A DNA stretch of 64,000 bases. Source: Hippasteria phrygiana (lineage: Eukaryota; Echinodermata; Asteroidea; Valvatida; Goniasteridae). The DNA is taken from NCBI GenBank assembly GCA_037893225.1, contig JAZGUH010000022.1, positions 372,001-436,000 on the forward strand. Direction: 5' to 3'. A program made the translations under genes and the position numbers. Under the pieces are notes generated by a model. It was not told the origin of the DNA. It ran no database searches and saw only the letters and a program-made list of their open reading frames with translations. Position 1 is the stretch's first letter. The number at the start of each line of letters is the position of its first letter. Positions 6,895-64,000 of the stretch are shown in pieces.

Positions 6895-7305
6895 AAGGGA
6901 AACTGACTAGGTAAATTTGAATACATTTTTAACGTAAACAAACAAAGAAAGCCGCTCCTGCCAGTTTTCTTTGTTTACTTTTGAAAATTTTTGAAAGTGA
7001 ACAAAGGAAACTGGCAGGAGTGGGATTTGAACCTGCGACCTCCATATTGTCTTACTGGTGCTCTGCCAATAGAGCTATCTTTCCCTGCATGTTGGCGGTC
7101 TCCCAAATTGTCAGTGTCTGTTCGGCAGGCGCTAGTCAGAAGTCATAAACTCATAATGCCATAGGCCTACAGCCAGGGAACACACTCCAACTTTACAATA
7201 CAACCTGGGAAGCGACATTGTCGGTATCACTCATTGAGGACACGACTTTTAATATCGTCAAACCAACCACATGGAAACTGACTAGGTAATTTTGAATGAA
7301 TCAGT
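6895..7305 (-). repeat. tRNA-derived SINE, near full length, reverse orientation
   Basis: On the minus strand the order is: body (CCCTTGTGG-like end, CAACCTGGGAAGCGACATTG complement, GACTAGCGCC), A-box region with an AGAGCTATCTT complement, B-box complement (GGATTTGAACC), then the tail ACTGGCAG/GAAACAAAG. The same tail is repeated in inverted order at about 6945-7000, as in the copy at 5265. This matches the copies at 21593-21939 and 57331-57640 over about 300 bases. The RNA polymerase III promoter boxes are present, but no functional tRNA fold is expected. Confidence 0.8.
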
Positions 7306-21592: not shown

Positions 21593-21939
21593 CTGCCAGT
21601 TTCTTTGTTCACTTTGAAAATGTATTCAAATTTACCTGGTCAGTTTCCCTTGTGGATTGTTTGACGAATTATAAGTTAAAAAGTCGTATCCTCATTGAGT
21701 GATCCCCACAATGTCGCTTCCCAGGTTGTATCGTAAAATTGGGTGTGATCCCTGGCTATACGGCATTCTGGGTTTATGACTTCTGACTAGCGCCCAGCCG
21801 AACAAAGATACTGACAAAATTATTTGGGAGACCGCCAACACAGGGCAAGATGGCTCAGTTGGTAGAGCGCCGGTACGGTAACCCGGAGGTCGCAGGTTCG
21901 AATCCCGCTACTGCCAGTTTCTTTGTTCACTTTGAAAAG
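21593..21939 (+). repeat. tRNA-derived SINE with 28-bp direct repeats at both ends
   Basis: A tRNA-like head (A box TGGCTCAGTTGG at 21851, B box GGTTCGAATCC at 21895) is preceded by a body of about 230 bases. The unit is bracketed by nearly identical direct copies of CTGCCAGTTTCTTTGTTCAC plus TTTGAAAA (21593 and 21911). The bracket sequence belongs to the family, so it is a shared end, not a target duplication; the unit may be one period of a tandem dimer. The copy at 57331-57640 matches closely. Confidence 0.85.
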
Positions 21940-34090: not shown

Positions 34091-34279
34091 AGTCATGTAA
34101 ACGGGTGCAATCGTGGACCTCCCATTGTTCCTCTTTTGTTTATACTCTAACTTTTTCGGAAGGCCTCCCATTGGTTTTGTACACGATTTTCAATCGTGGA
34201 CGTTAGGTCAAACGTGGACCCCTTTGTCTACGCCCGAATTCTTTTGTCCTAGGTCCACGATTGCCGGCATATACAAACT
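34091..34279 (+). repeat. 189-bp dispersed repeat, copy 1
   Basis: It runs from AGTCATGTAAACGGGTGCAA to GCCGGCATATACAAACT and is essentially identical to 58769-58957, 24 kb away. It contains repeated words around CGTGGACC and CCCATTG. Near identity implies recent spread. Confidence 0.9.
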
Positions 34280-34333
34280 CACCCATACTCCTACCACTTC
34301 CCATCCCTGAAAGAGTATTTGACAAAACAGGTT

Positions 34334-35027: not shown

Positions 35028-36470
35028 TATTTATATTGCGCCAATTCCATACAATGTACACCAGCGCATAACAAACATGAAAACATAAAACAGATAAATA
35101 CAGATAAATAACAATTGTCTTAAAAGGACATGCAACAATCGTTTAAACATTAAAATTGTTGACAATAAACCAAATAATCTAGTGAAAGCAAAAAATGGAT
35201 AACAAATAAAGATCATTAAAAATACATTGAAACATTTGTAATTTGCAGATAAATAACGAATTACAAATAGATAATACAAGATCTCATACAGACACAATTA
35301 ATTGGTAAAAACATGACATTTGTTTACCATAAATGAAGTAAATTATCAAGTGAGAGCATGAATAAAAAGAATAAGAAATAGCTAAACGTAACATTAAATT
35401 ACATGAATCAGTGTCTCGGTACATTCCTTTGATAAATATTTCCTCATTCGTCTAATTTTATGCAAATAATAAAAAGCACTTCCACAAACTTTAGTGACAT
35501 GAGTTTTCATTGTCATATTGGCATCAAACCATGCCCCTAGATTACGGGCAAATGAAACAGGGGAGACAATAGACTGCCCTACCTGTATACCATCCAATGT
35601 AACTTTAGATAATTGCTGACGGGTACCAATTATCAAGAACTCTGTTTTACTGTCATTCAAAAATAATCCATTATTAATAAAACATTGTCGTACATCCTGT
35701 ATGCAAACTTCCATAGCAGAAAGAGCAGACTCCTGACTACCTGCTTCATCGGGACAGAATGATAGATACAACTGAGTATCGTCTGAGTAACAGTGAATCT
35801 GTGGATGATGAGCTTTGACAATATCAAACAATTGACTGGTATACAAAATAGAAAGCAAGGGGCAAAGACATTACCATTGTGGTATTTCCCATTCAATATT
35901 GCGTTTACCTGACAATTACCATTAATTAAAACCCTTTGAGATCTATTGCCTAGATATGAACAAAACCAATTGAGGGCTGTACCGTTAACTCCAAAACGTG
36001 ATTGGAGTATGCTCAATAAAACACTATGATCTAGTGTGTCGAATGTAGCACTTAAATCTAATAAGACAAACCGTGAAACATGCTTTTTGTTCATAGCCAT
36101 TAACAAATCATTATGAATTTTCAAAAGAGCCGTTTCAGTACTATGAAATTTGCGATGAGATGACTGAGTCAATTCAATTCAATTCAATTCAATTCAATGT
36201 TATTTCGTCACAATTAAAAACTTTAAAAGTGAAATTCATCTTCCTAATGTGCACATAAAAAACAATATGGATATACATGATTTCGAGTCAGATAAGACTG
36301 TAATTGACATGCCACAGCTCTTTCCAATAGTTTTGAAACAAACTGTAAATTACAAACAGGTCGAAAGTTCTCCACCTTAATCTCGAGTCCTGGCTTTTTT
36401 AACAGAGGCAGAACTGCTGACTTCCACATGGATGGAAAATGCCCAGTTTTTAATGAAAGGTTAATCAACT
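34985..36470 (-). pseudogene. LINE (L2/CR1-like) with RT domain, 3' UTR and ATT tail, broken
   Basis: On the minus strand, 36468-36260 encodes LKTGHFPSMWKSAVLPLLKK, ENFRPVCNLQFVSKLLERAV; 36165-35880 encodes RKFHSTETALLKIHNDLL and LDLSATFDTLDHSVLL (RT block with the first catalytic Asp position); 35858-35394 encodes HCYSDDTQLYLSF with the YxDD active-site block and FLNDSKTEFLIIGTR. A frameshift lies near 35865. A foreign insert interrupts it at about 36168-36258. The end of the RT protein is deleted after 35394, but the typical 3' end (GGCGCAATATAAATACATT plus ATT repeats, 34988-35040) is kept. Dead copy; LINE identity is clear. Confidence 0.9.
36168..36258 (-). mobile_element. Short retroelement tail inserted in the LINE
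   Basis: The segment contains GTGACGAAATAACA followed by five or more TTGAA units (36170-36198). It splits the LINE coding sequence between the LERAV block and the FHSTETALL block. A TTGAA-repeat tail of this kind is typical of L2-clade LINEs or their SINEs, so this is probably a nested, strongly 5'-truncated insertion. Confidence 0.6.
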
Positions 36471-39458
36471 CGCTGTTAATTTAGATCATGCTGTTGTTTT
36501 TTTAGTTGTTTTTCTATTTAGTGACGCATAAGACACCATTTGTTTTGAGTTTATACTTTGTGAAACCGAATTAAGAATCGTGCACGCTTGAAAGATACAG
36601 GCATTGCCCGCGGCGCCCGATTACGAATCCAGCTATAACAAACCACAAAAGAGGATCATCTTCAAGGCGCTGTCTTTTGATAACCGGCCGGATATTGTGA
36701 AATTCTTCTCACTAGCTCTGCTTTTCTAATCACGCACACCGGCGAAATCTTCACTTTATTGCAAATATTGGATTTAGAGGTTGGGGGGCTTGCAGGATTG
36801 AAACCTGACTCGGGAAGATAATGGCCACAATCTTCTTCTTTTTTCTTCCGGGCAGAGCAGACGCTGAATTATTACATCAAAGGAAAAGCGAATCTGTTCA
36901 TTTCTCTTCAAAGTTAAACTAGGAACAGGTGTACCATTGTTGGTATCATTGTTGCAATTTTGTTATTGCCTTAATTAATTACTTGTTACTCATTTACCCA
37001 TTCATTATTGCAGTGTTTTGGGTTCATATCTTGAGTGAAAAAGATAATCAACTGCTTAGAATTTCTGCCATTGTGAATTTTTTTGCATAAACTGAAGGAA
37101 CAAGATGACGTCATCACTGAACTGACCCAAAAGCTGACGTCATGCAAGTATGGTGTACGGGAGGCCGAGATGCTACTGACAATTCATATCGATATATACA
37201 GTATATAAGGCTGCCGCAAGAAACACTTGCGGATACACTACATATAGTGACTAACTCTAAAAAGTGTGGTTCCTTGACGAACCGGAGGTATTAATCCGAC
37301 GTTTCGATCAGTGTGCTGTGACCATCGACAGGAGAGAACCTCCACCACGCAAAGCCATAAATCACATTTAAGAATAAAGTAATATCATTCAATATCGAAG
37401 GGCTTCTAATGGTTTCATGTTGCTGTCTCAACTTTCTCAGTTATTTGCATTTTCTTTAATTGCCTTTGAAATGATACTTTTAAAGCAATTTCATCAAAGA
37501 TCTCAGGTTCCTTCATTTGGTTGTATTCGTTTATTATATGATTTTGCCTGTCGTGACTTGGAACTTTATCTTACAAAGTGTACCTCTCACTTTAAGTATT
37601 GAATCTATATAGGCTTATATTGCCAATTTTAACTTATTTAAAGTGCAAATTTTGTTGCAATCAACAACTGCAGATTACTGTGAATGTCAAGTGTCGTGAC
37701 TGGTCTATAACGGCAAATGGTGAACAGTGAGGGACATTGTCACTGTTAATGACAGCGACCACGCCCCTACAGACAGCGACCACGCCCCTAATTCTAAAAC
37801 GAGTTGATTAGTACATCATGCAATGTTTAGTAGCCTATAAGGTGACACGTATGAAGCAACTAACAATAGCTCAGCCGTGGATTTATTTTCTTTTGTTCGT
37901 CTTGTTTGGCATTCTTTTCAATGAATTCGTCAAATCTTTCGGAAATTGCTGTGTTCACTTTTTGTGTTAAATTAGAAGCATGCATGCTAGTATTTGCAAG
38001 AGCTATACCAACATCTCTGCGTACGAGATGATATACCTTTAAGCTAGATCGCTCCCAGGTACCACAAATAACTGCGAATTAAATTTCTCAGAAAGAGTGG
38101 GACGAATTGCCCTGAACAGCCCTTCCGTCTAACCCTGGCCATGGGTGCACGTACCTAGTATTTTGGCGCACTACAAACCAAATTGAAACGACTTTATGGA
38201 CGAGGCAATCATCTCTGTATACCTACCGTCTTGGTTAGAACTCCACCCCCCTTCCCACACACCCACACACCTTTTGTCGTTGTGATACAAGCTACAAGGG
38301 GCGCACGTTGTGTAACTGCAAGGTGGTTCGTGTGGTGAGATAGAGGCGGGCAAATTCTAATCAAATTATGCAGTCTCGCAACAGACGACCGATGCGTCTG
38401 TGCATTTCGCTTGCTTTAATCTCGCAGTTTGCGAAAAATGAATGATACTCACGTTTATTATACAAGGTCATGCTTTGTGTGTTTAATCCATGACCATCCA
38501 GAACTTTATTAACACAACCTTCGCCGTTTAGTTATTGAGATGGGTTCAATATTCTTTTATAGTATTAAAACAAAATTTAAAATGGAGTTGCCAATTTCGT
38601 CTTTAGATGCCTGAACGGTTTGATAGTTTACCAAATACGAACGCTGTGAAAATAATGTCAAACAGAAGTAATTCAGATCTTATACCGAGACATGAATCAG
38701 CCGCCTTTTTTCGGCGAAATGTGTCATCTGTGCCAACGCATTCTGATGAGTTCGGTTTGCGTAGATAGAGATTGCGTGTATGCCGGTTTGCATTGTGTGC
38801 ACAGAATACATACTTGTCCATTACGAGCTGGGTTAGATTTGGGGCAATTTACCCGTTGCCCCGGCTTGGGAACCAAACCAATAATAGTAGGTTTAGGCAA
38901 GATCCAGACCGTGCAATGCGAAACAACTCCCACAGGCGGTATGGTTTACAGGCTACATCAAGGGTCTCTTTTTGGAGTGCACTTGCATTATGGGGGTATA
39001 TAGGGCCTACTTGCATATCAGGGAATTACATTTTTGGTCTCGAAGACAAGAGGTGGGCTGGGATGCCTATAGCGTTTATATCGTCAAAGCTCTTTTAAAG
39101 ACGGTTGTTGACAAAAATGACAGTTTAAAGTTGAAGACGCATGCATACTTTAACGTTTTCCAAAATGATTGTAATGGCATGTGTCACACGGCAACGACAA
39201 ATATAAACGAAATCAGTTGAGTGGCGGAACTTGGCGGCACTGGAAGAGGGAAAGCTGTCCTCCCCATTCCCTCGGCAACCTAATTTAGAATTTAGAAAAA
39301 AGGAGAGCTTAAGAAAATAATTTCCATTTGAGATTGTAGCTTTGTAGTCTTCGGGACCCCCCCCCCCCCCCCCCCCAACAAAAAAAACAATAAGGGGGAG
39401 GGGGCATATCATGGTACACTTTACTGTAATATGATTGGCAAGTAGTATGGTTGGTAAC
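36471..39458. other. Non-coding DNA
   Basis: No gene supported. A hammerhead-like remnant is at 37296-37332. A direct duplication of GACAGCGACCACGCCCCT lies at 37752-37789. A poly-C run is at about 39357-39376. Confidence 0.4.
37296..37332 (-). other. Degenerate hammerhead-like core
   Basis: On the minus strand CTGTCGAT, GGTCA, an eight-base loop, TGATC and GAAAC follow in order. GGTCA and TGATC can pair as a 5-bp stem II (one G-U pair). The first block should be CTGANGA and has one changed base. Related to 13681-13718. Confidence 0.25.
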
Positions 39459-49558: not shown

Positions 49559-49790
49559 GCAAATACGTCGGTGAAGGGCAAAAAAAACCTATTCATGTAT
49601 ATTAAATTTACATCACCCGACGCAAATTCCATCTTATGAACATTTCGGTGGTCGAGTGGTAAGACGTCTGCACTAGAAAACAGGAGGTCGTGGGTTCGAG
49701 TCCCACCCGAGTGGTTTTTTTTCTTCAAATAATCTCTCGGAGCAACACTGAGTAGACAGTGTTTATAAAATACGTCGGTGAAGGGCAAAA
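49559..49790 (+). repeat. tRNA-like SINE between 22-base direct repeats
   Basis: A tRNA-like core (A box TGGTCGAGTGGTAAGACG, B box GGGTTCGAGTCCC, about 49650-49710) is followed by TTTTTTTTCTT. AAATACGTCGGTGAAGGGCA plus further A residues occurs as a direct repeat at about 49560 and 49769. The repeats could be a long target duplication or shared family ends. The acceptor stem pairs poorly, so it is not a functional tRNA gene. Confidence 0.65.
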
Positions 49791-55686: not shown

Positions 55687-55781
55687 ATTCATGGATCGAC
55701 TCGACAGTCTGGACCCGGCCCGTATACACACACTAGGTCTACACGTGCAATTTCGTAAGTTGCAACAACAACTAACATCGA

Positions 55782-55787
55782 ACTTAC
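55782..55787 (-). promoter_or_regulatory. Splice donor of the THAP exon
   Basis: On the minus strand GTAAGT follows AAATCAGG. The open frame runs on past it, but the extension has no THAP-family character, supporting exon end at 55788. Confidence 0.7.
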
Positions 55788-56132
55788 CCTGATTTTCTCC
55801 CTTTTAGCGAAGGCTCCACGGGGAATGGGCCGTTTAACTGCTTTCGCCTTTATCTTACTCACATCTGGGAACTTTGTTGGGATGGCAGTGGACTTGAGCA
55901 TATTTTTAATGGTCATCCCAAAGGATTTGAAAATACCAGTATCGAAACACGACGGCTCAAAGTGGTCGCTACATAACGCTGAAAAGCTGCTGGGGCCGGA
56001 CCTCTTTGCTCTTGTCACCTTCACTTTCGCCGTCCAAATTCTCCGATATTTCGCTTCAGTTGGAAATAAATGAAGGCTTACTCCACCCGTCGTTGTTTTG
56101 CTGCACCCAGCAGCCACACACCTTGTCGGCAT
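55788..56132 (-). CDS. THAP-domain zinc-finger protein, first coding exon
   Basis: The exon encodes 115 residues in a whole number of codons. The N-terminal 90 residues form a THAP domain, a C2CH zinc-dependent DNA-binding module shared by THAP transcription regulators and P-element-type transposases. Visible are MPTRCVAAGC (zinc ligands Cys5 and Cys10), HLFP at 21-24, the conserved Trp33, LCSDHF (ligands Cys54 and His57, C-x4-C-x43-C-x2-H) and the closing AIPTKF at 83-88, the family's AVPTIF box. A basic tail (KIKAKAVKRPIPRG) follows and may be a nuclear localisation signal. ATG 56132 is chosen over an upstream in-frame ATG (56246) because THAP proteins start directly at this motif. Later exons were not identified, so a host regulator and a domesticated or intact transposase cannot be told apart. 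It is antisense to the ELK channel. Confidence 0.9.
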
Positions 56133-56290
56133 GGCCGTAAAACACTTATTTTGCTTAGATTTTGGACGAAGAATTTTCGCCGTACAATGTACGCACAATG
56201 CATACCCGTGATGAATGGGTAATGTGCCTCGATCTACGTCACACACTTATGTTAATGAGGGTCCCACTCAAGGGGCGGAGTAGCTTAGAC
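56133..56290 (-). promoter_or_regulatory. Leader and likely promoter region of the THAP gene
   Basis: An open frame continues upstream of the THAP start to 56246 but has no family resemblance, so this is probably 5' UTR. A GC-box-like GGGGCGG lies at about 56272. The start of transcription cannot be placed. Confidence 0.35.
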
Positions 56291-57330: not shown

Positions 57331-57640
57331 CAAATTTAGCTAGTCAGTTTCCCTTGTGGATTGTTTGACGAATTATAAGTTAAAAAGTCGTATCGTCATT
57401 GAGTGATCCCACAATGTCGCTTCCCAGGTTGTATCGTAAAATTGGGTGTGATCCCCGGCTGTACGGCATTCTGGGTTTATGACTTCTGACTAGCGCCCAC
57501 CCGAACAAAGATACTGACAATTTGGGAGACCGCCAACATAGGGCAAGATAGCTCAGTTGGTAGAGCGCCAGTACGGTAACCCGGAGGTCGCAGGTTCGAA
57601 TCCCGCTCATGCCAGTGTCTTTGTTTACTTTGAAAATGTT
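57331..57640 (+). repeat. tRNA-derived SINE, first family, near full length
   Basis: Body from CTAGTCAGTTTCCCTTGTGG through CTTCCCAGGTTGTATCGTAA, then a tRNA-like head with A box TAGCTCAGTTGG (57549) and B box GGTTCGAATCC (57593), then the GCCAGTGTCTTTGTTTAC end. It matches 21593-21939 with few differences, so the family was active fairly recently. Confidence 0.88.
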
Positions 57641-58768: not shown

Positions 58769-59160
58769 AGTCATGTAAACGGGTGCAATCGTGGACCTCC
58801 CATTGTTCCTCTTTTGTTTATACTCTAACTTTTTCGGAAGGCCTCCCATTGGTTTTGTACACGATTTTCAATCGTGGACGTTAGGTCAAACGTGGACCCC
58901 TTTGTCTACGCCCGAATTCTTTTGTCCTAGGTCCACGATTGCCGGCATATACAAACTAACTGACACACACACACATGTGTAAACGGGTGCAATCGGGGTC
59001 CTCCTATTGTCCCTCTTTTGTTTGTACTTTAACTTTTTCGGAAGGCCTTCCATTGGTTTTGTACACGATTTTCAAACGGGGACCTTTCTCAATCGGGGAC
59101 CCTATTGTCCTCTTTTGTTAAAGTTCCCCTATTGAATGCAAAAACAAACTTACTTACCCA
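58769..59160 (+). repeat. 189-bp repeat copy 2 and a diverged tandem copy 3
   Basis: 58769-58957 is essentially identical to 34091-34279. After a CA-repeat spacer a diverged unit starts at 58975 (GTAAACGGGTGCAATCGGGG) and runs to about 59160 with the same word order (TTTTTCGGAAGGCC, CCATTGGTTTTGTACACGAT), where CGTGGACC words are replaced by CGGGGACC. Frames in it are duplicated between copies but are not genes. Confidence 0.88.
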
Positions 59161-60450: not shown

Positions 60451-60747
60451 TTAATGGTCCCTTAAGGAGACATTTTGTCATCATTCTTATTACCTTAAGG
60501 AGACTAGTGACATTAGGGAGACATTGAAATGTCTCCCTAATGTCACAGCCCCTTTAAATATTGAGAATTTTACTGTCGGAACTGGGTTGTATCGATAGAG
60601 GATGGTCCAAAACATAAATATACCGGAATTCGTGGGGGTAGGATAAGGGGAAAGTTGGGTTAGGTTACATTAAAGTCGGGAAAAAAGTTGTGCACAAGTC
60701 TATGGGAAAGTCTCCCTAATGACCCATCGCCGGTAATTATAATAATT

Positions 60748-61080
60748 GGCTTTTCCGACACTTCCAGTCGGAAAAGGCCTTGTTTTTGTCCAGATTTTTT
60801 TTTTTGGCTTTTCCGACAACCAGTCGGAAAAGGCTTTGTTTTTGTTCCGATTTTTTGGCTTTTCCGAAATTTTTCGGAAAAGGCTTTGTTTTTGTTGTGA
60901 TTTTTTTTTGGCTTTTCCGAAATTTTTCGGAAAAGGCTTTGTTTTTGTTCTGATTTTTGTTTTGGCTTTTCCGAAAACCTTCGGAAAAGGCATTGTTTTT
61001 GTTCTGATTTTTTTTTTTTTATTGGCTTTTCCGAAAACCTTCGGAAAAGGCATTGTTTTTGTTCTGATTTTTTTTTTTTT
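60748..61080. repeat. Six tandem units, each with a TTTTCCGA/TCGGAAAA hairpin
   Basis: Units start at 60748, 60806, 60857, 60910, 60964 and 61024 (spacing 51-60 bases). Each has GGCTTTTCCGA, a short loop, TCGGAAAAGGC(C/T/A)TTG, TTTTTGT and a poly-T run. The last two are identical over about 60 bases. Stem sequence is conserved while loops vary (for example ACCAG, AATTT, AAACCT). Frames on both strands are periodic by-products. Confidence 0.92.
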
Positions 61081-61290
61081 ATTTCTTCTTCTTCTTCTTC
61101 TTACTTTAGTTCTATCCCAAATCCCATAGACTTTGTACACGAATTTTATAGGTGGCACTTTGGTCACTAAACAATCTCAGATCTTAATCAAACTTAACAC
61201 AAACAAAAACCCTAACCTGAAATTGTATGCCGAAGAGTGACGTCATAATGACGTCATCACGTGATTTTTTATGATTTTTTGAATTTTGAA
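61081..61290. repeat. Start of the higher-order CRE-rich repeat block
   Basis: A CTT microsatellite (61084-61102) leads into TCTATCCCAAATCCCATAGA, a block that recurs at 62835, 63302 and 63514. It ends with a TGACGTCA pair near 61240. Confidence 0.8.
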
Positions 61291-62255
61291 AATCGTAACA
61301 TTCTTTTCAATATATCTAGCGAACAAAACAAGATATTTTCAAAATTCCTTTTGTTATGGCTTTGGTATGTCTCAAAGATATGCCCTAAAAAGCGAAAATT
61401 GTGTGACGTCATGATGACTTCATCAAAAATTTGTTTTTTTTTAAACGCATGTAAGTGTCAATCCGATTACAAAAATGTATACATTGAATTTTTCTGTACG
61501 TAATTCCAAAATTTCATGATCGTGGCTCACTCAAGTAAGAAATAACAGCCATTTCAAAATTTAGACCAAATTCAATATAACACAAAGGAATTCTGGGACG
61601 GGCAGATAACCATGGGTATTATGTGCTTGCTGTTTATAAAAGGGGTTGATTTCTAGTCTTTTTTCAAGTCGCTGATTTTTTTAAGTTTTAAAATCGTAAC
61701 ATTCTTTTCAATATATCTAGCGAACAAAACAAGATATTTTCAAAATTCTTTTTGTTATGGCTTTGGTATGTCTCAAAGATATGCCCTAAAAAGCGAAAAT
61801 TGTGTGACGTCATGATGACGTCATCCAAATTTTTTTTTTTTTTAAACGAATGTAAGTGTCAATTCGATTACAAAAATGTATACATTGAATTTTTCTCTAC
61901 CTAATTCCAAAATTTCATGATCGTGGCTAACCCAAGTAAGAAATAGCAGCCATTTCAAAATGTAGACCAAATTCAATATAACACAAAGGAATTCTGGGAA
62001 GGGCAGATAACCATGGCTTAAAAGTGCATGCTGTTTATAAAAAGAATTGATTTGTAGTCTTTTTTCAAGTCGCTGAATTTCTAAATTGTTTAAATCGTAA
62101 CATTCTTTTCAATATATCTAGCGAACAAAACAAGATATTTTCAAAATTCTTTTTGTTATAGCTTTCGTATGTTTCAAAGATATGCCCTAAAAAGCGAAAA
62201 TTGTGTGACGTCATGATGACGTAATAAAATAAATCTGTTTTCAAGTCGCGAGAAT
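61291..62255. repeat. 401-bp tandem repeat, about 2.4 copies
   Basis: The word AATCGTAACATTCTTTTCAA starts at 61291, 61692 and 62093, an exact 401-base spacing both times. Each unit holds ATATATCTAGCGAACAAAAC, GATATGCCCTAAAAAGCGAA, a TGACGTCA pair (partly decayed) and GGAATTCTGGGA. The third is cut off by about 62255. Confidence 0.92.
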
Positions 62256-64000
62256 AGTGCCCATAGCATTGTAAACGTTTTCTTTCTTACTGGCCACTTT
62301 GGCTACTTTTAAACTTGGCAGACACTTACCCCAACTGCTCACAATGTGTGCCGACCTTTTACGTCATGATGACGTCATCACATGTCACGTGACGTCATCT
62401 TAAAGATGATTTTTCAAGGGCCCATATCTAGAGAGCCGTAGGTCCGATTTCCTTTAAACCCGGTATGTTGGTAGACCACCACGTGTTATAGATGAAAATT
62501 TACGTGACGTCATGATGACGTCATCATACGATTTTATAGTAATTTTAAAGTTTTTGAACATTAAAGTTTCTTAAAGCCATATCTCATCAACAGAACATGC
62601 TAAATCCAAAATTCTTTTTGGAATAGCTTTGTTAGCTCCTATATTCTTTCACATACATGGGAAAATGTGTGACGTCATCATGACGTCATCAAAAATGTTC
62701 TTTTTTGAAACACATATAAAGGTACGTGCGATCGTCATAAAAATTGCAGGGTAGGTAGATAATGCTACTAGCATGTCAAATCCAAAGTAACGTCATGGTG
62801 ACGTCATCGGCTGATTTTCTATGAAATTTTTAGTTCTATCCCAAATCCCATAGACTTTGTACACGAATTTTGTAAGTGGCACTTTGCTCACTAAACAACC
62901 TCAGATCTTAATCAGGCTTAACACAAACAAAGACCCTAAGCTAAAAATGTATGCCGAAACGTGACATCATGATGACGTCATGATGACGTCATCACGTGTC
63001 ACGTGACGTCATTTTAAAGGTGCATTTTTCATTTTATCAATGAAAATTGTGGTGACTTCATGATGACGTCATCATATCATCTTATATTAATTTTTAAGTT
63101 TTGTTAGCTCCGATATTCTTTCATTTCAATGTGAAAAAGTGTGACCTCATCATGACGTCAAAAATGTGCTTTTGAAAAACACATAAGAATAGGTCTGATT
63201 ATTATAAAAATTGGTGGGTAGGTAGATAGTGCCAGTAGAATGTAACATCCGAAGTGACGTCATGATGACGTCATCTTCTAATTTTCTATGAATCTTTTTG
63301 TTCTATCCAAAATCCCGTAGACTTTGTACACGAATTTTGTACAAATCACTTTACTCACTATAAACATCAGATCTTAATCAAACTTAACACAAACATAGAA
63401 CGTACGCTGAAGTTTTAGGGTGGAAAAAAAAACACGGAAAAGCCTTGTGTTCTGTTTCAAACAGACACAAACCTCTAGTTTTTTTTTTTGTTTCTTTTTT
63501 TTCCTATTTTAGTTCTATCCCAAATCTCATAGACTTTGTACACAAATGTTGTCGCGGGCACTTCGGTCATCAAACAACCTCAGATCTTAATCATATTTAC
63601 CATAGACATTGACCCTCAACTGAAATTATATGCCGAAGAGTGACGTCATGATGACGTCATCACGTGTCACGTGACGTCATCTTAAAGGTGCATTTTTCAA
63701 GGGCCCATATCTAGAGAACTGTAGGTCCGATTGCATTCAAATATGCTATGGTGGTAGACAAGTACGTGTTATAGATGAAAATTCAGGTGACGTCATGATG
63801 ACGTCATCATACGATTTTATAGTAATGTTTAAGTTTTTGAATCTTAAAGTTTCTTAAAGCCATATCTTATTAGGAGAACATGCTAAATTCAAAATTCTTT
63901 TTGTAATAGATTTGTTAGCTCCTATATTCTTTCACATAAATGTGAAAAATGTGTGACGTCATCATGACGTCATCAAAAATATGCTTTTTTGAAACACATA
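62256..64000. repeat. Higher-order repeat with paired CRE palindromes, runs off the window
   Basis: Two long blocks are related at an offset of about 1,282 bases (CGTAGGTCCGATT near 62437 and the same context near 63719). They share CAAGGGCCCATATCTAGAGA, GTGTTATAGATGAAAATT and many TGACGTCATGATGACGTCAT pairs. Shorter internal copies start at 62835, 63302 and 63514. Near 63435 CGGAAAAGCCTTGTGTTC echoes the hairpin units at 60748-61080, suggesting both belong to one element or array. No coding frame is present. Confidence 0.88.

What the first reader, a model, noticed from the sequence alone, without database searches (positions are those of the whole stretch)
61232..64000. Dense array of paired CRE palindromes (TGACGTCA) in a higher-order repeat
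More than 20 copies of TGACGTCA occur in under 3 kb, many as TGACGTCATGATGACGTCA (two sites 11 bases apart, about one helical turn), often followed by CACGTGTCACGTGACGTCA, which adds CACGTG E-box palindromes. TGACGTCA is the CREB/ATF consensus and CACGTG binds bHLH factors. Chance would give about 0.04 sites in this length. The repeat could sequester factors, act as a giant enhancer in the channel intron, or be an element whose protein recognises this site. These roles are inference; the pattern is visible.
Basis: partly seen in the sequence, partly recalled or inferred. Interest (0 to 1): 0.75.

Follow-up and report, generated by a model that had tools for sequence, protein, structure and literature searches.

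The report
Satellite-like repeat with conserved twin CRE box
The end of this animal DNA window is a mosaic repeat whose diverged pieces are joined by a nearly unchanging 23-letter box of two perfect CREB/ATF-type sites, which suggests that the box either does something or is kept alike by recombination.

Summary
Of 34 exact TGACGTCA in the window, 27 lie in 61238-63972, against 0.06 expected in shuffles of that stretch. They form one unit: a box G-TGACGTCA-T[G/C]A-TGACGTCA-TCA, found 15 times, two sites 11 bp apart, in one orientation judged by the flanking letters. Three boxes are followed 20 bp on by a further site in a CACGTG-type extension.

The boxes separate four kinds of diverged module (L, B, C, D) in a higher-order repeat that runs off the window. 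CRE bases of matching boxes differ at 3-5%, whether flanks differ by 11% (recent copies) or 22-24% (older ones). For the nine best-supported old pairs it is 8 of 192 against 243 of 997. Pure passengers are disfavoured, although the youngest copies show no such difference.

Best reading: a satellite-like repeat with a conserved docking box for a bZIP (CREB/ATF) protein, similar in logic to the CENP-B box. Strong rival: local gene conversion at a palindromic hotspot. Binding, chromatin and genome-wide copy number could not be tested. No channel gene was found, so the intron-enhancer idea lacks support.

The parts
60742..61080 (+). Hairpin tract: six copies (about 54 bp period) of GGCTTTTCCGA..TCGGAAAAGGC; a degenerate remnant recurs near 63425-63500
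   Evidence: a stretch with two units folds with z -7.5; remnant by eye
61105..61236 (+). Module L (leader), copy L1; further copies 62812-62960 (L2), 63279-63417 (L3), 63507-63639 (L4), diverged copy 62253-62356 (L0)
   Evidence: z 4.2 to 29.7 among L copies
61237..61259 (+). Box 1: G-TGACGTCA-TAA-TGACGTCA-TCA
61272..62229 (+). 401-bp tandem unit (old C, then a D-like part, plus extra sequence), 2.4 copies, each C end carrying a box (61404, 61805, 62206)
   Evidence: (93% matches), D1; the D-like part is only weakly supported (z 3.5)
62359..62397 (+). Box with E-box extension, one change in each (TTACGTCA; CACATG)
62398..62503 (+). Module B, copy B2; further copies 63012-63051 (shortened) and 63680-63786
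62505..62523 (+). Box core, B/C junction
62529..62668 (+). Module C, copy C4; further copies 63077-63140 (shortened) and 63812-63952
62670..62688 (+). Box core with TCA spacer, C/D junction; same spacer at 63142 and 63954
62694..62786 (+). Module D, copy D4; further copies 63161-63253 and from 63973 to the window end
62962..63011 (+). Expanded box: three 11-bp units (first with TGACATCA) followed by CACGTGTCACGTGACGTCA
63641..63679 (+). Box plus CACGTGTCACGTGACGTCA, all exact; contains the 10-bp palindrome GTCACGTGAC
63788..63972 (+). Box, module C6, box: last complete module before the window end

Best explanation
This is part of a satellite-like higher-order repeat in the genome of an unidentified invertebrate-like animal. 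Its modules have diverged strongly, but each normal junction keeps a 23-bp box with two full CREB/ATF (bZIP) sites 11 bp, about one helical turn, apart. Shown here: the box, its single orientation, its sharp edges and its slow divergence in older comparisons. Partly shown: modules B and D, and the two C groups, share ancestry; B with C is doubtful and L may be separate. Inferred: the box is a docking site for a host bZIP dimer pair (CREB/ATF-like), in some units also for a bHLH factor at GTCACGTGAC, and it persists because binding matters to the repeat's chromatin or transcription, as the CENP-B box does in alpha satellite (recalled). The likeliest outcome of binding, by precedent, is recruitment of silent chromatin or transcription of the repeat by an ATF-2/Atf1-type protein.
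For: All 15 boxes read on the + strand: mean agreement 0.97 and 0.98 at the two CREs, against 0.51 and 0.56 in the 28-bp flanks (baseline for random placement in the array 0.42). CRE-base differences: 11 of 224 (recent), 9 of 192 (old within type), 8 of 240 (between types), against flanks 168 of 1489, 262 of 1076 and 148 of 682. With no box used twice: 2 of 64 against 104 of 427, and 3 of 80 against 107 of 421. Only the nine pairs with z of 6 or more: 8 of 192 against 243 of 997; 5 of 12 box comparisons without difference against 0 of 208 flank windows. Flanks come from local alignments with gaps left out, which understates their divergence. 26 of 27 exact sites read RTGACGTCAT. All 30 slots of the 15 boxes have at most one change, so none of the altered sites is restored on its other arm. 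CpG changed in 4 of 21 comparisons inside CREs and 24 of 50 elsewhere. Precedent: Atf1-Pcr1 at two CRE sites helps to establish heterochromatin at the fission yeast mat locus (PMC9389250, passages); dATF-2 is needed for Drosophila heterochromatin (PMC3444692, passages).
Against: Only one array in one genome. The youngest copies (401-bp unit) show no slower decay at the CREs: 4 of 48 against 46 of 635. Comparisons share copies, so p-values are too small. Several between-type alignments are weak: B with C reaches z 4.5 at most, while reverse-strand controls reach 5.4. Boxes were found by likeness; by eye every junction with its normal modules on both sides had one, and box-less ends adjoin rearranged sequence. 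C has other conserved blocks. TGACGTCA is also over-represented outside the array (7 against 0.74-0.83). No binding protein, chromatin or expression data. Gene conversion restricted to the box would look alike.
Confidence: 0.45

Rival explanations
1. The box is kept alike by recombination, not by selection for binding. CRE palindromes act as break or exchange points; repair from a neighbouring box erases mutations in the only stretch that all junctions share, and drives module shuffling and box expansion.
For: Box divergence does not rise with flank divergence. A triple 11-bp unit at 62962 shows slippage or unequal exchange inside a box. Homology of the third 401-bp copy stops close after a box (62229, 62241; box core ends at 62224). 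Four box-bearing stretches fold as hairpins with z -2.5 to -4.5. The CRE-like heptamer ATGACGT is a meiotic recombination hotspot in fission yeast through Atf1-Pcr1 (PMC9775316, passages).
Against: Old C/D pairs show no steady gradient of identity away from the box: leftwards 0.95, then 0.45 and 0.50, later up to 0.95; rightwards 0.75, 0.79, 0.74, 0.50, later up to 0.90 (10-bp bins, four pairs). The shortened B and C copies are deleted inside modules, not at boxes (by eye). PMC9775316 also reports an exact TGACGTCA in ade6 that is not bound and does not promote recombination.
Confidence: 0.27
2. Passengers: an old monomer happened to contain the paired palindrome, and amplification copied it.
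For: All boxes have one orientation and B and D are related, so descent from one monomer is plausible. The youngest copies show equal decay.
Against: Older comparisons show roughly 5- to 7-fold fewer differences in the box (ratios 0.19 and 0.15; 0.042 against 0.244).
Confidence: 0.15
3. Part of a mobile element (foldback or hairpin-rich non-autonomous element), with the box as binding site of the element's own transposase or integrase.
For: Hairpin tract and L module occur together twice (60742-61236 and about 63425-63639). The window has a LINE reverse transcriptase piece and a THAP ORF.
Against: No terminal repeats, target-site duplication or element ends could be identified. The only likeness elsewhere in the window at E 0.01 or better is an 87-bp, 67% match of L to two dispersed repeats. 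No ORF of 100 aa or more lies inside the box array; those over the hairpin tract and first L matched no Pfam family above cut-off, and one spurious shorter ORF found no relative.
Confidence: 0.1
4. Array enhancer, or decoy for CREB/ATF, acting on a nearby channel gene.
For: Sites are full consensus and densely paired.
Against: No channel family in 46 of 46 ORFs of 100 aa or more; short exons not excluded; the stretch is built as a repeat.
Confidence: 0.03

Closest known systems
Alpha satellite with CENP-B box (recalled, not fetched)
   Same: Higher-order repeat of diverged monomers in which a short protein-binding box is better conserved than the monomer
   Different: Box sequence unrelated (twin 8-bp CREs against a 17-bp CENP-B box); modules of very unequal length; centromere location and binding protein unknown here
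Ca_SR8, a 150-bp satellite of Caenorhabditis auriculariae (PMC13370393, passages)
   Same: The published FISH probe holds TGACGTCATCA, as in the second half of the box; similar monomer length
   Different: The probe shows one site, not a pair; a nematode satellite eliminated from somatic cells; its full unit was not seen, so homology is untested
Fission yeast mat-locus CRE sites bound by Atf1-Pcr1 (PMC9389250, passages)
   Same: CREB/ATF sites as starting points of silent chromatin
   Different: Two sites at one locus, not a repeat family; binding is known there and unknown here
ade6-M26 CRE-like recombination hotspot (PMC9775316, passages)
   Same: CRE-like sequence recruiting bZIP proteins and promoting recombination
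   Different: A single created site in a gene; no array

Membership tests
Satellite or higher-order repeat DNA | Head-to-tail copies of a unit, with multi-module units repeated as blocks | tested here: met
   401-bp unit, 2.4 copies, 93% matches; block from the end of L to the start of D repeated about 1283 bp apart at 88% (B to C part 89%)
Satellite or higher-order repeat DNA | Long arrays, many copies, typical chromosomal location | not testable with these tools
   Window ends inside the array; whole-genome search did not complete
CENP-B-box-like satellite | Short box conserved beyond the rest of the monomer | tested here: met
   for older copies; not seen in the youngest copies
CENP-B-box-like satellite | Box bound by a dedicated protein at centromeres | not testable with these tools
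   No binding data; box is not the CENP-B box (recalled sequence)
CREB/ATF binding site | TGACGTCA with suitable flanks | tested here: met
   27 exact sites, 26 as RTGACGTCAT; the preference for these flanks is recalled
CREB/ATF binding site | Occupancy in vivo | not testable with these tools
   none
Foldback or DNA transposon | Inverted terminal repeats and target-site duplication | tested here: inconclusive
   The 25 longest of 47 inverted pairs shown in 60700-64000 are box-centred pairs and hairpin-tract pairs; no element ends recognised; target-site duplications were not searched for systematically

The most novel reading that the evidence does not exclude
An animal satellite-like family has made a twin-CRE box its conserved docking site, so that a CREB/ATF-type protein, a signalling and stress responder, marks satellite chromatin (silencing, or stress-induced transcription) through a fixed pair of sites one helical turn apart, in part combined with an E-box palindrome.
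Probability: 0.22. Interest if true: 0.75.

Novelty: new variant of a known kind. Interest (0 to 1): 0.5.

Why it matters
The CENP-B box is the standard case of a short protein box that outlasts the rest of a satellite monomer (recalled). A second, unrelated box made of textbook CREB/ATF sites would tie satellite chromatin to a signal-responsive factor family already linked to heterochromatin in yeast and flies (PMC9389250, PMC3444692, passages), and would make that link testable in another animal lineage. If gene conversion explains it instead, the array is a natural record of CRE-centred recombination.

Tried and rejected
Searched the 19-mer TGACGTCATGATGACGTCA in viral contigs (0 stretches) and in prokaryote genomes (19 stretches). 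The 19 prokaryote loci hold only 2-5 TGACGTCA in 8 kb, so they are not arrays. CACGTGTCACGTGACGTCA gave one viral contig, whose 2451 bases held contain one TGACGTCA. Two further patterns gave nothing in viral contigs. Phage records gave nothing. One spurious ORF of the array found no protein relative. The 19-mer is in no paper of the library, and TGACGTCA with 'satellite DNA' and 'tandem repeat' together in none. The other searches gave precedents; no listed title or shown abstract start describes this repeat. Passages of four papers were read, none in full. No eukaryote genome collection was at hand.

I first took the three boxes with spacer TCA (C/D junction) as inverted, and reverse-complemented them; one of these rows was mis-framed and fell out, so that profile used 14 rows and its flank agreement was too low. 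The flanking letters showed all boxes in one orientation (last lines), and repeats the profile on the + strand with all 15 rows. On checking I also saw that B-C and old D-D likenesses (z 4.5 and 3.5 at most) do not exceed the best reverse-strand scores (5.4); the conservation test was therefore repeated with the nine pairs of z 6 or more, with the same outcome.

Taxon: the only named relative of the THAP ORF (1 of 5 hits) is from Acanthaster planci (53%); the best organism-named hit of the reverse transcriptase among the 120 listed of 301 is from the coral Oculina patagonica (59%). The taxon stays open.

Full report
OBSERVATION. The window holds 34 exact TGACGTCA; 27 lie between 61238 and 63972. 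Dinucleotide shuffles of 61232-64000 alone give a mean of 0.059 and never more than 2 in 1000. CACGTG occurs 7 times there (mean 0.46, maximum 3). Outside the array TGACGTCA occurs 7 times against about 0.74-0.83 expected, so the octamer is somewhat common in this DNA in general; some other palindromes are too. No copy of the 23-bp box with 5 or fewer mismatches lies outside the array; the best has 6.

ANATOMY. The sites are not scattered. There are 34 slots (27 exact, 7 with one substitution), sixteen neighbour spacings of 11 bp and three of 20 bp. On the + strand 15 boxes, the triple at 62962 counted once, read G-TGACGTCA-T[G/C/A]A-TGACGTCA-TCA: G before it in 13 of 15, and T, C, A after it in 14, 13 and 12 of 15. 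The middle spacer base is G in 11, C in 3 (all at C/D junctions) and A in 1. Agreement is 0.97 and 0.98 at the two CREs, 0.51 and 0.56 in the 28-bp flanks, and 0.42 for random placement in the array. In 3 of 15 the box is followed by CACRTGTCACGTGACGTCA, which holds the palindrome GTCACGTGAC; this 10-mer occurs three times in the array and not in the rest of the window. That this form resembles the TFEB/MITF-type E-box is recalled.

The boxes separate modules: L (copies near 61105, 62253, 62812, 63279, 63507), B (62398, 63012, 63680), C (61272, 61673, 62074, 62529, 63077, 63812) and D (61429 and 61830, weakly supported; 62694, 63161, 63973 onward). The order is L-box-B-box-C-box-D-box-L; the first block lacks B and carries the 401-bp C-D-like expansion. 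With boxes excluded, B and D are related (z 3.4 to 7.0) and the two C groups clearly so (z 6.0 to 7.2). B and C (z up to 4.5) and old against new D (z 3.5) do not exceed the best reverse-strand scores (5.4), and L shows no clear relation to B, C or D (153 pairs, 60 shuffles each). A tract of six hairpins (60742-61080) lies just before the first L, and a remnant lies before the L copy at 63507.

If the sites were passengers they should decay like the modules. For recent copies of the same module, CRE bases differ at 11 of 224 and flanks at 168 of 1489. For old copies of the same type the figures are 9 of 192 and 262 of 1076; between types, 8 of 240 and 148 of 682. Sets in which no box is used twice give 2 of 64 against 104 of 427, and 3 of 80 against 107 of 421. 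Of 27 box comparisons in the old and between-type groups, 12 show no difference and 25 at most one (counted); of 243 ungapped flank windows of the same shape, 0 and 12 do. With only the nine pairs of z 6 or more: 8 of 192 against 243 of 997, and 5 of 12 box comparisons without difference against 0 of 208 windows. Against this: in the youngest set, the 401-bp unit, the CREs differ as much as the rest (4 of 48 against 46 of 635); module C has other well-kept 10-bp blocks; and the comparisons share copies, so no p-value is quoted. Detection bias was checked by eye only: every junction with its normal modules on both sides has a recognisable box, and the box-less ends (after the D-like part of the 401-bp units, before the second and third C, and after L at 63417) adjoin different sequence.

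MECHANISM. Two explanations fit a box that stays alike while modules drift. The first is selection on a binding site: sharp edges, fixed 11-bp spacing, RTGACGTCAT in 26 of 27 exact sites, and no compensating change on the other arm of any of the 7 altered sites. The second is gene conversion or exchange at the shared palindromes: a triple box at 62962, a homology break close after the box at 62206, and hairpin potential. The lack of a steady identity gradient away from the box on either side and deletions inside modules rather than at boxes weigh mildly against the second. A bZIP protein could do both: in fission yeast Atf1-Pcr1 at CRE sites helps to establish heterochromatin at mat (PMC9389250, passages) and makes a CRE-like site a recombination hotspot, although an exact TGACGTCA in the same gene is neither bound nor a hotspot (PMC9775316, passages).

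CONTEXT. No channel gene was found: all 46 ORFs of 100 aa or more listed were scanned against Pfam, plus four shorter ones. A THAP domain (E 9e-13) passed its cut-off; a reverse transcriptase piece (E 8e-6, below its cut-off) is supported by 301 protein relatives. Three other matches were below cut-off (Aldose_epim 0.0088, Androgen_recep 1.2e-5 on a proline/glycine-rich ORF, PI_PP_I 0.0055). No tool result names the organism; that it is an animal is inferred from the THAP ORF, the LINE and the tRNA-like repeats.

COMPARISON. By construction the array is a higher-order satellite-like repeat, and the conserved box recalls the CENP-B box (recalled). A nematode satellite, Ca_SR8 (150 bp), has a published probe holding TGACGTCATCA (PMC13370393, passages); whether this is more than coincidence cannot be said, since its full unit was not seen. 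The 19-mer is in no paper of the library searched.

VERDICT. A real, well-delimited feature. It is a new variant of a known kind (repeat with a conserved protein-site-like box), with a plausible but untested link to CREB/ATF proteins.

Noticed in passing
60742-61080: Six tandem hairpins GGCTTTTCCGA..TCGGAAAAGGC with about 54-bp period; a remnant of the same tract lies near 63425-63500.
   Followed up: partly
60507-60546: Perfect foldback with 18-bp arms, z -10.7.
   Followed up: no
55692-56246 (-): ORF with a THAP domain (E 9e-13); the only named relative of five is from Acanthaster planci, 53%.
   Followed up: partly
35397-36178 (-): A LINE-like reverse transcriptase piece (35397-35870) overlaps an upstream ORF in another frame (35660-36178) that looks like its continuation by eye but matched no Pfam family, so possibly a frameshifted copy.
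   Followed up: partly
7012-7084 (-), 21844-21916, 49645-49710, 57542-57614 (+): Four tRNA-like matches in Rfam, possibly tRNA-derived SINEs.
   Followed up: no
1-61231: Palindrome TAGGCCTA occurs 15 times against 0.49 expected, TACCGGTA 6 against 0.52.
   Followed up: no
34101-34307 and 58779-58979: Dispersed repeats whose translations are near-identical; an 87-bp part of each resembles module L at 67%.
   Followed up: partly
37106-37142: Two exact TGACGTCA 29 bp apart, outside the array.
   Followed up: no
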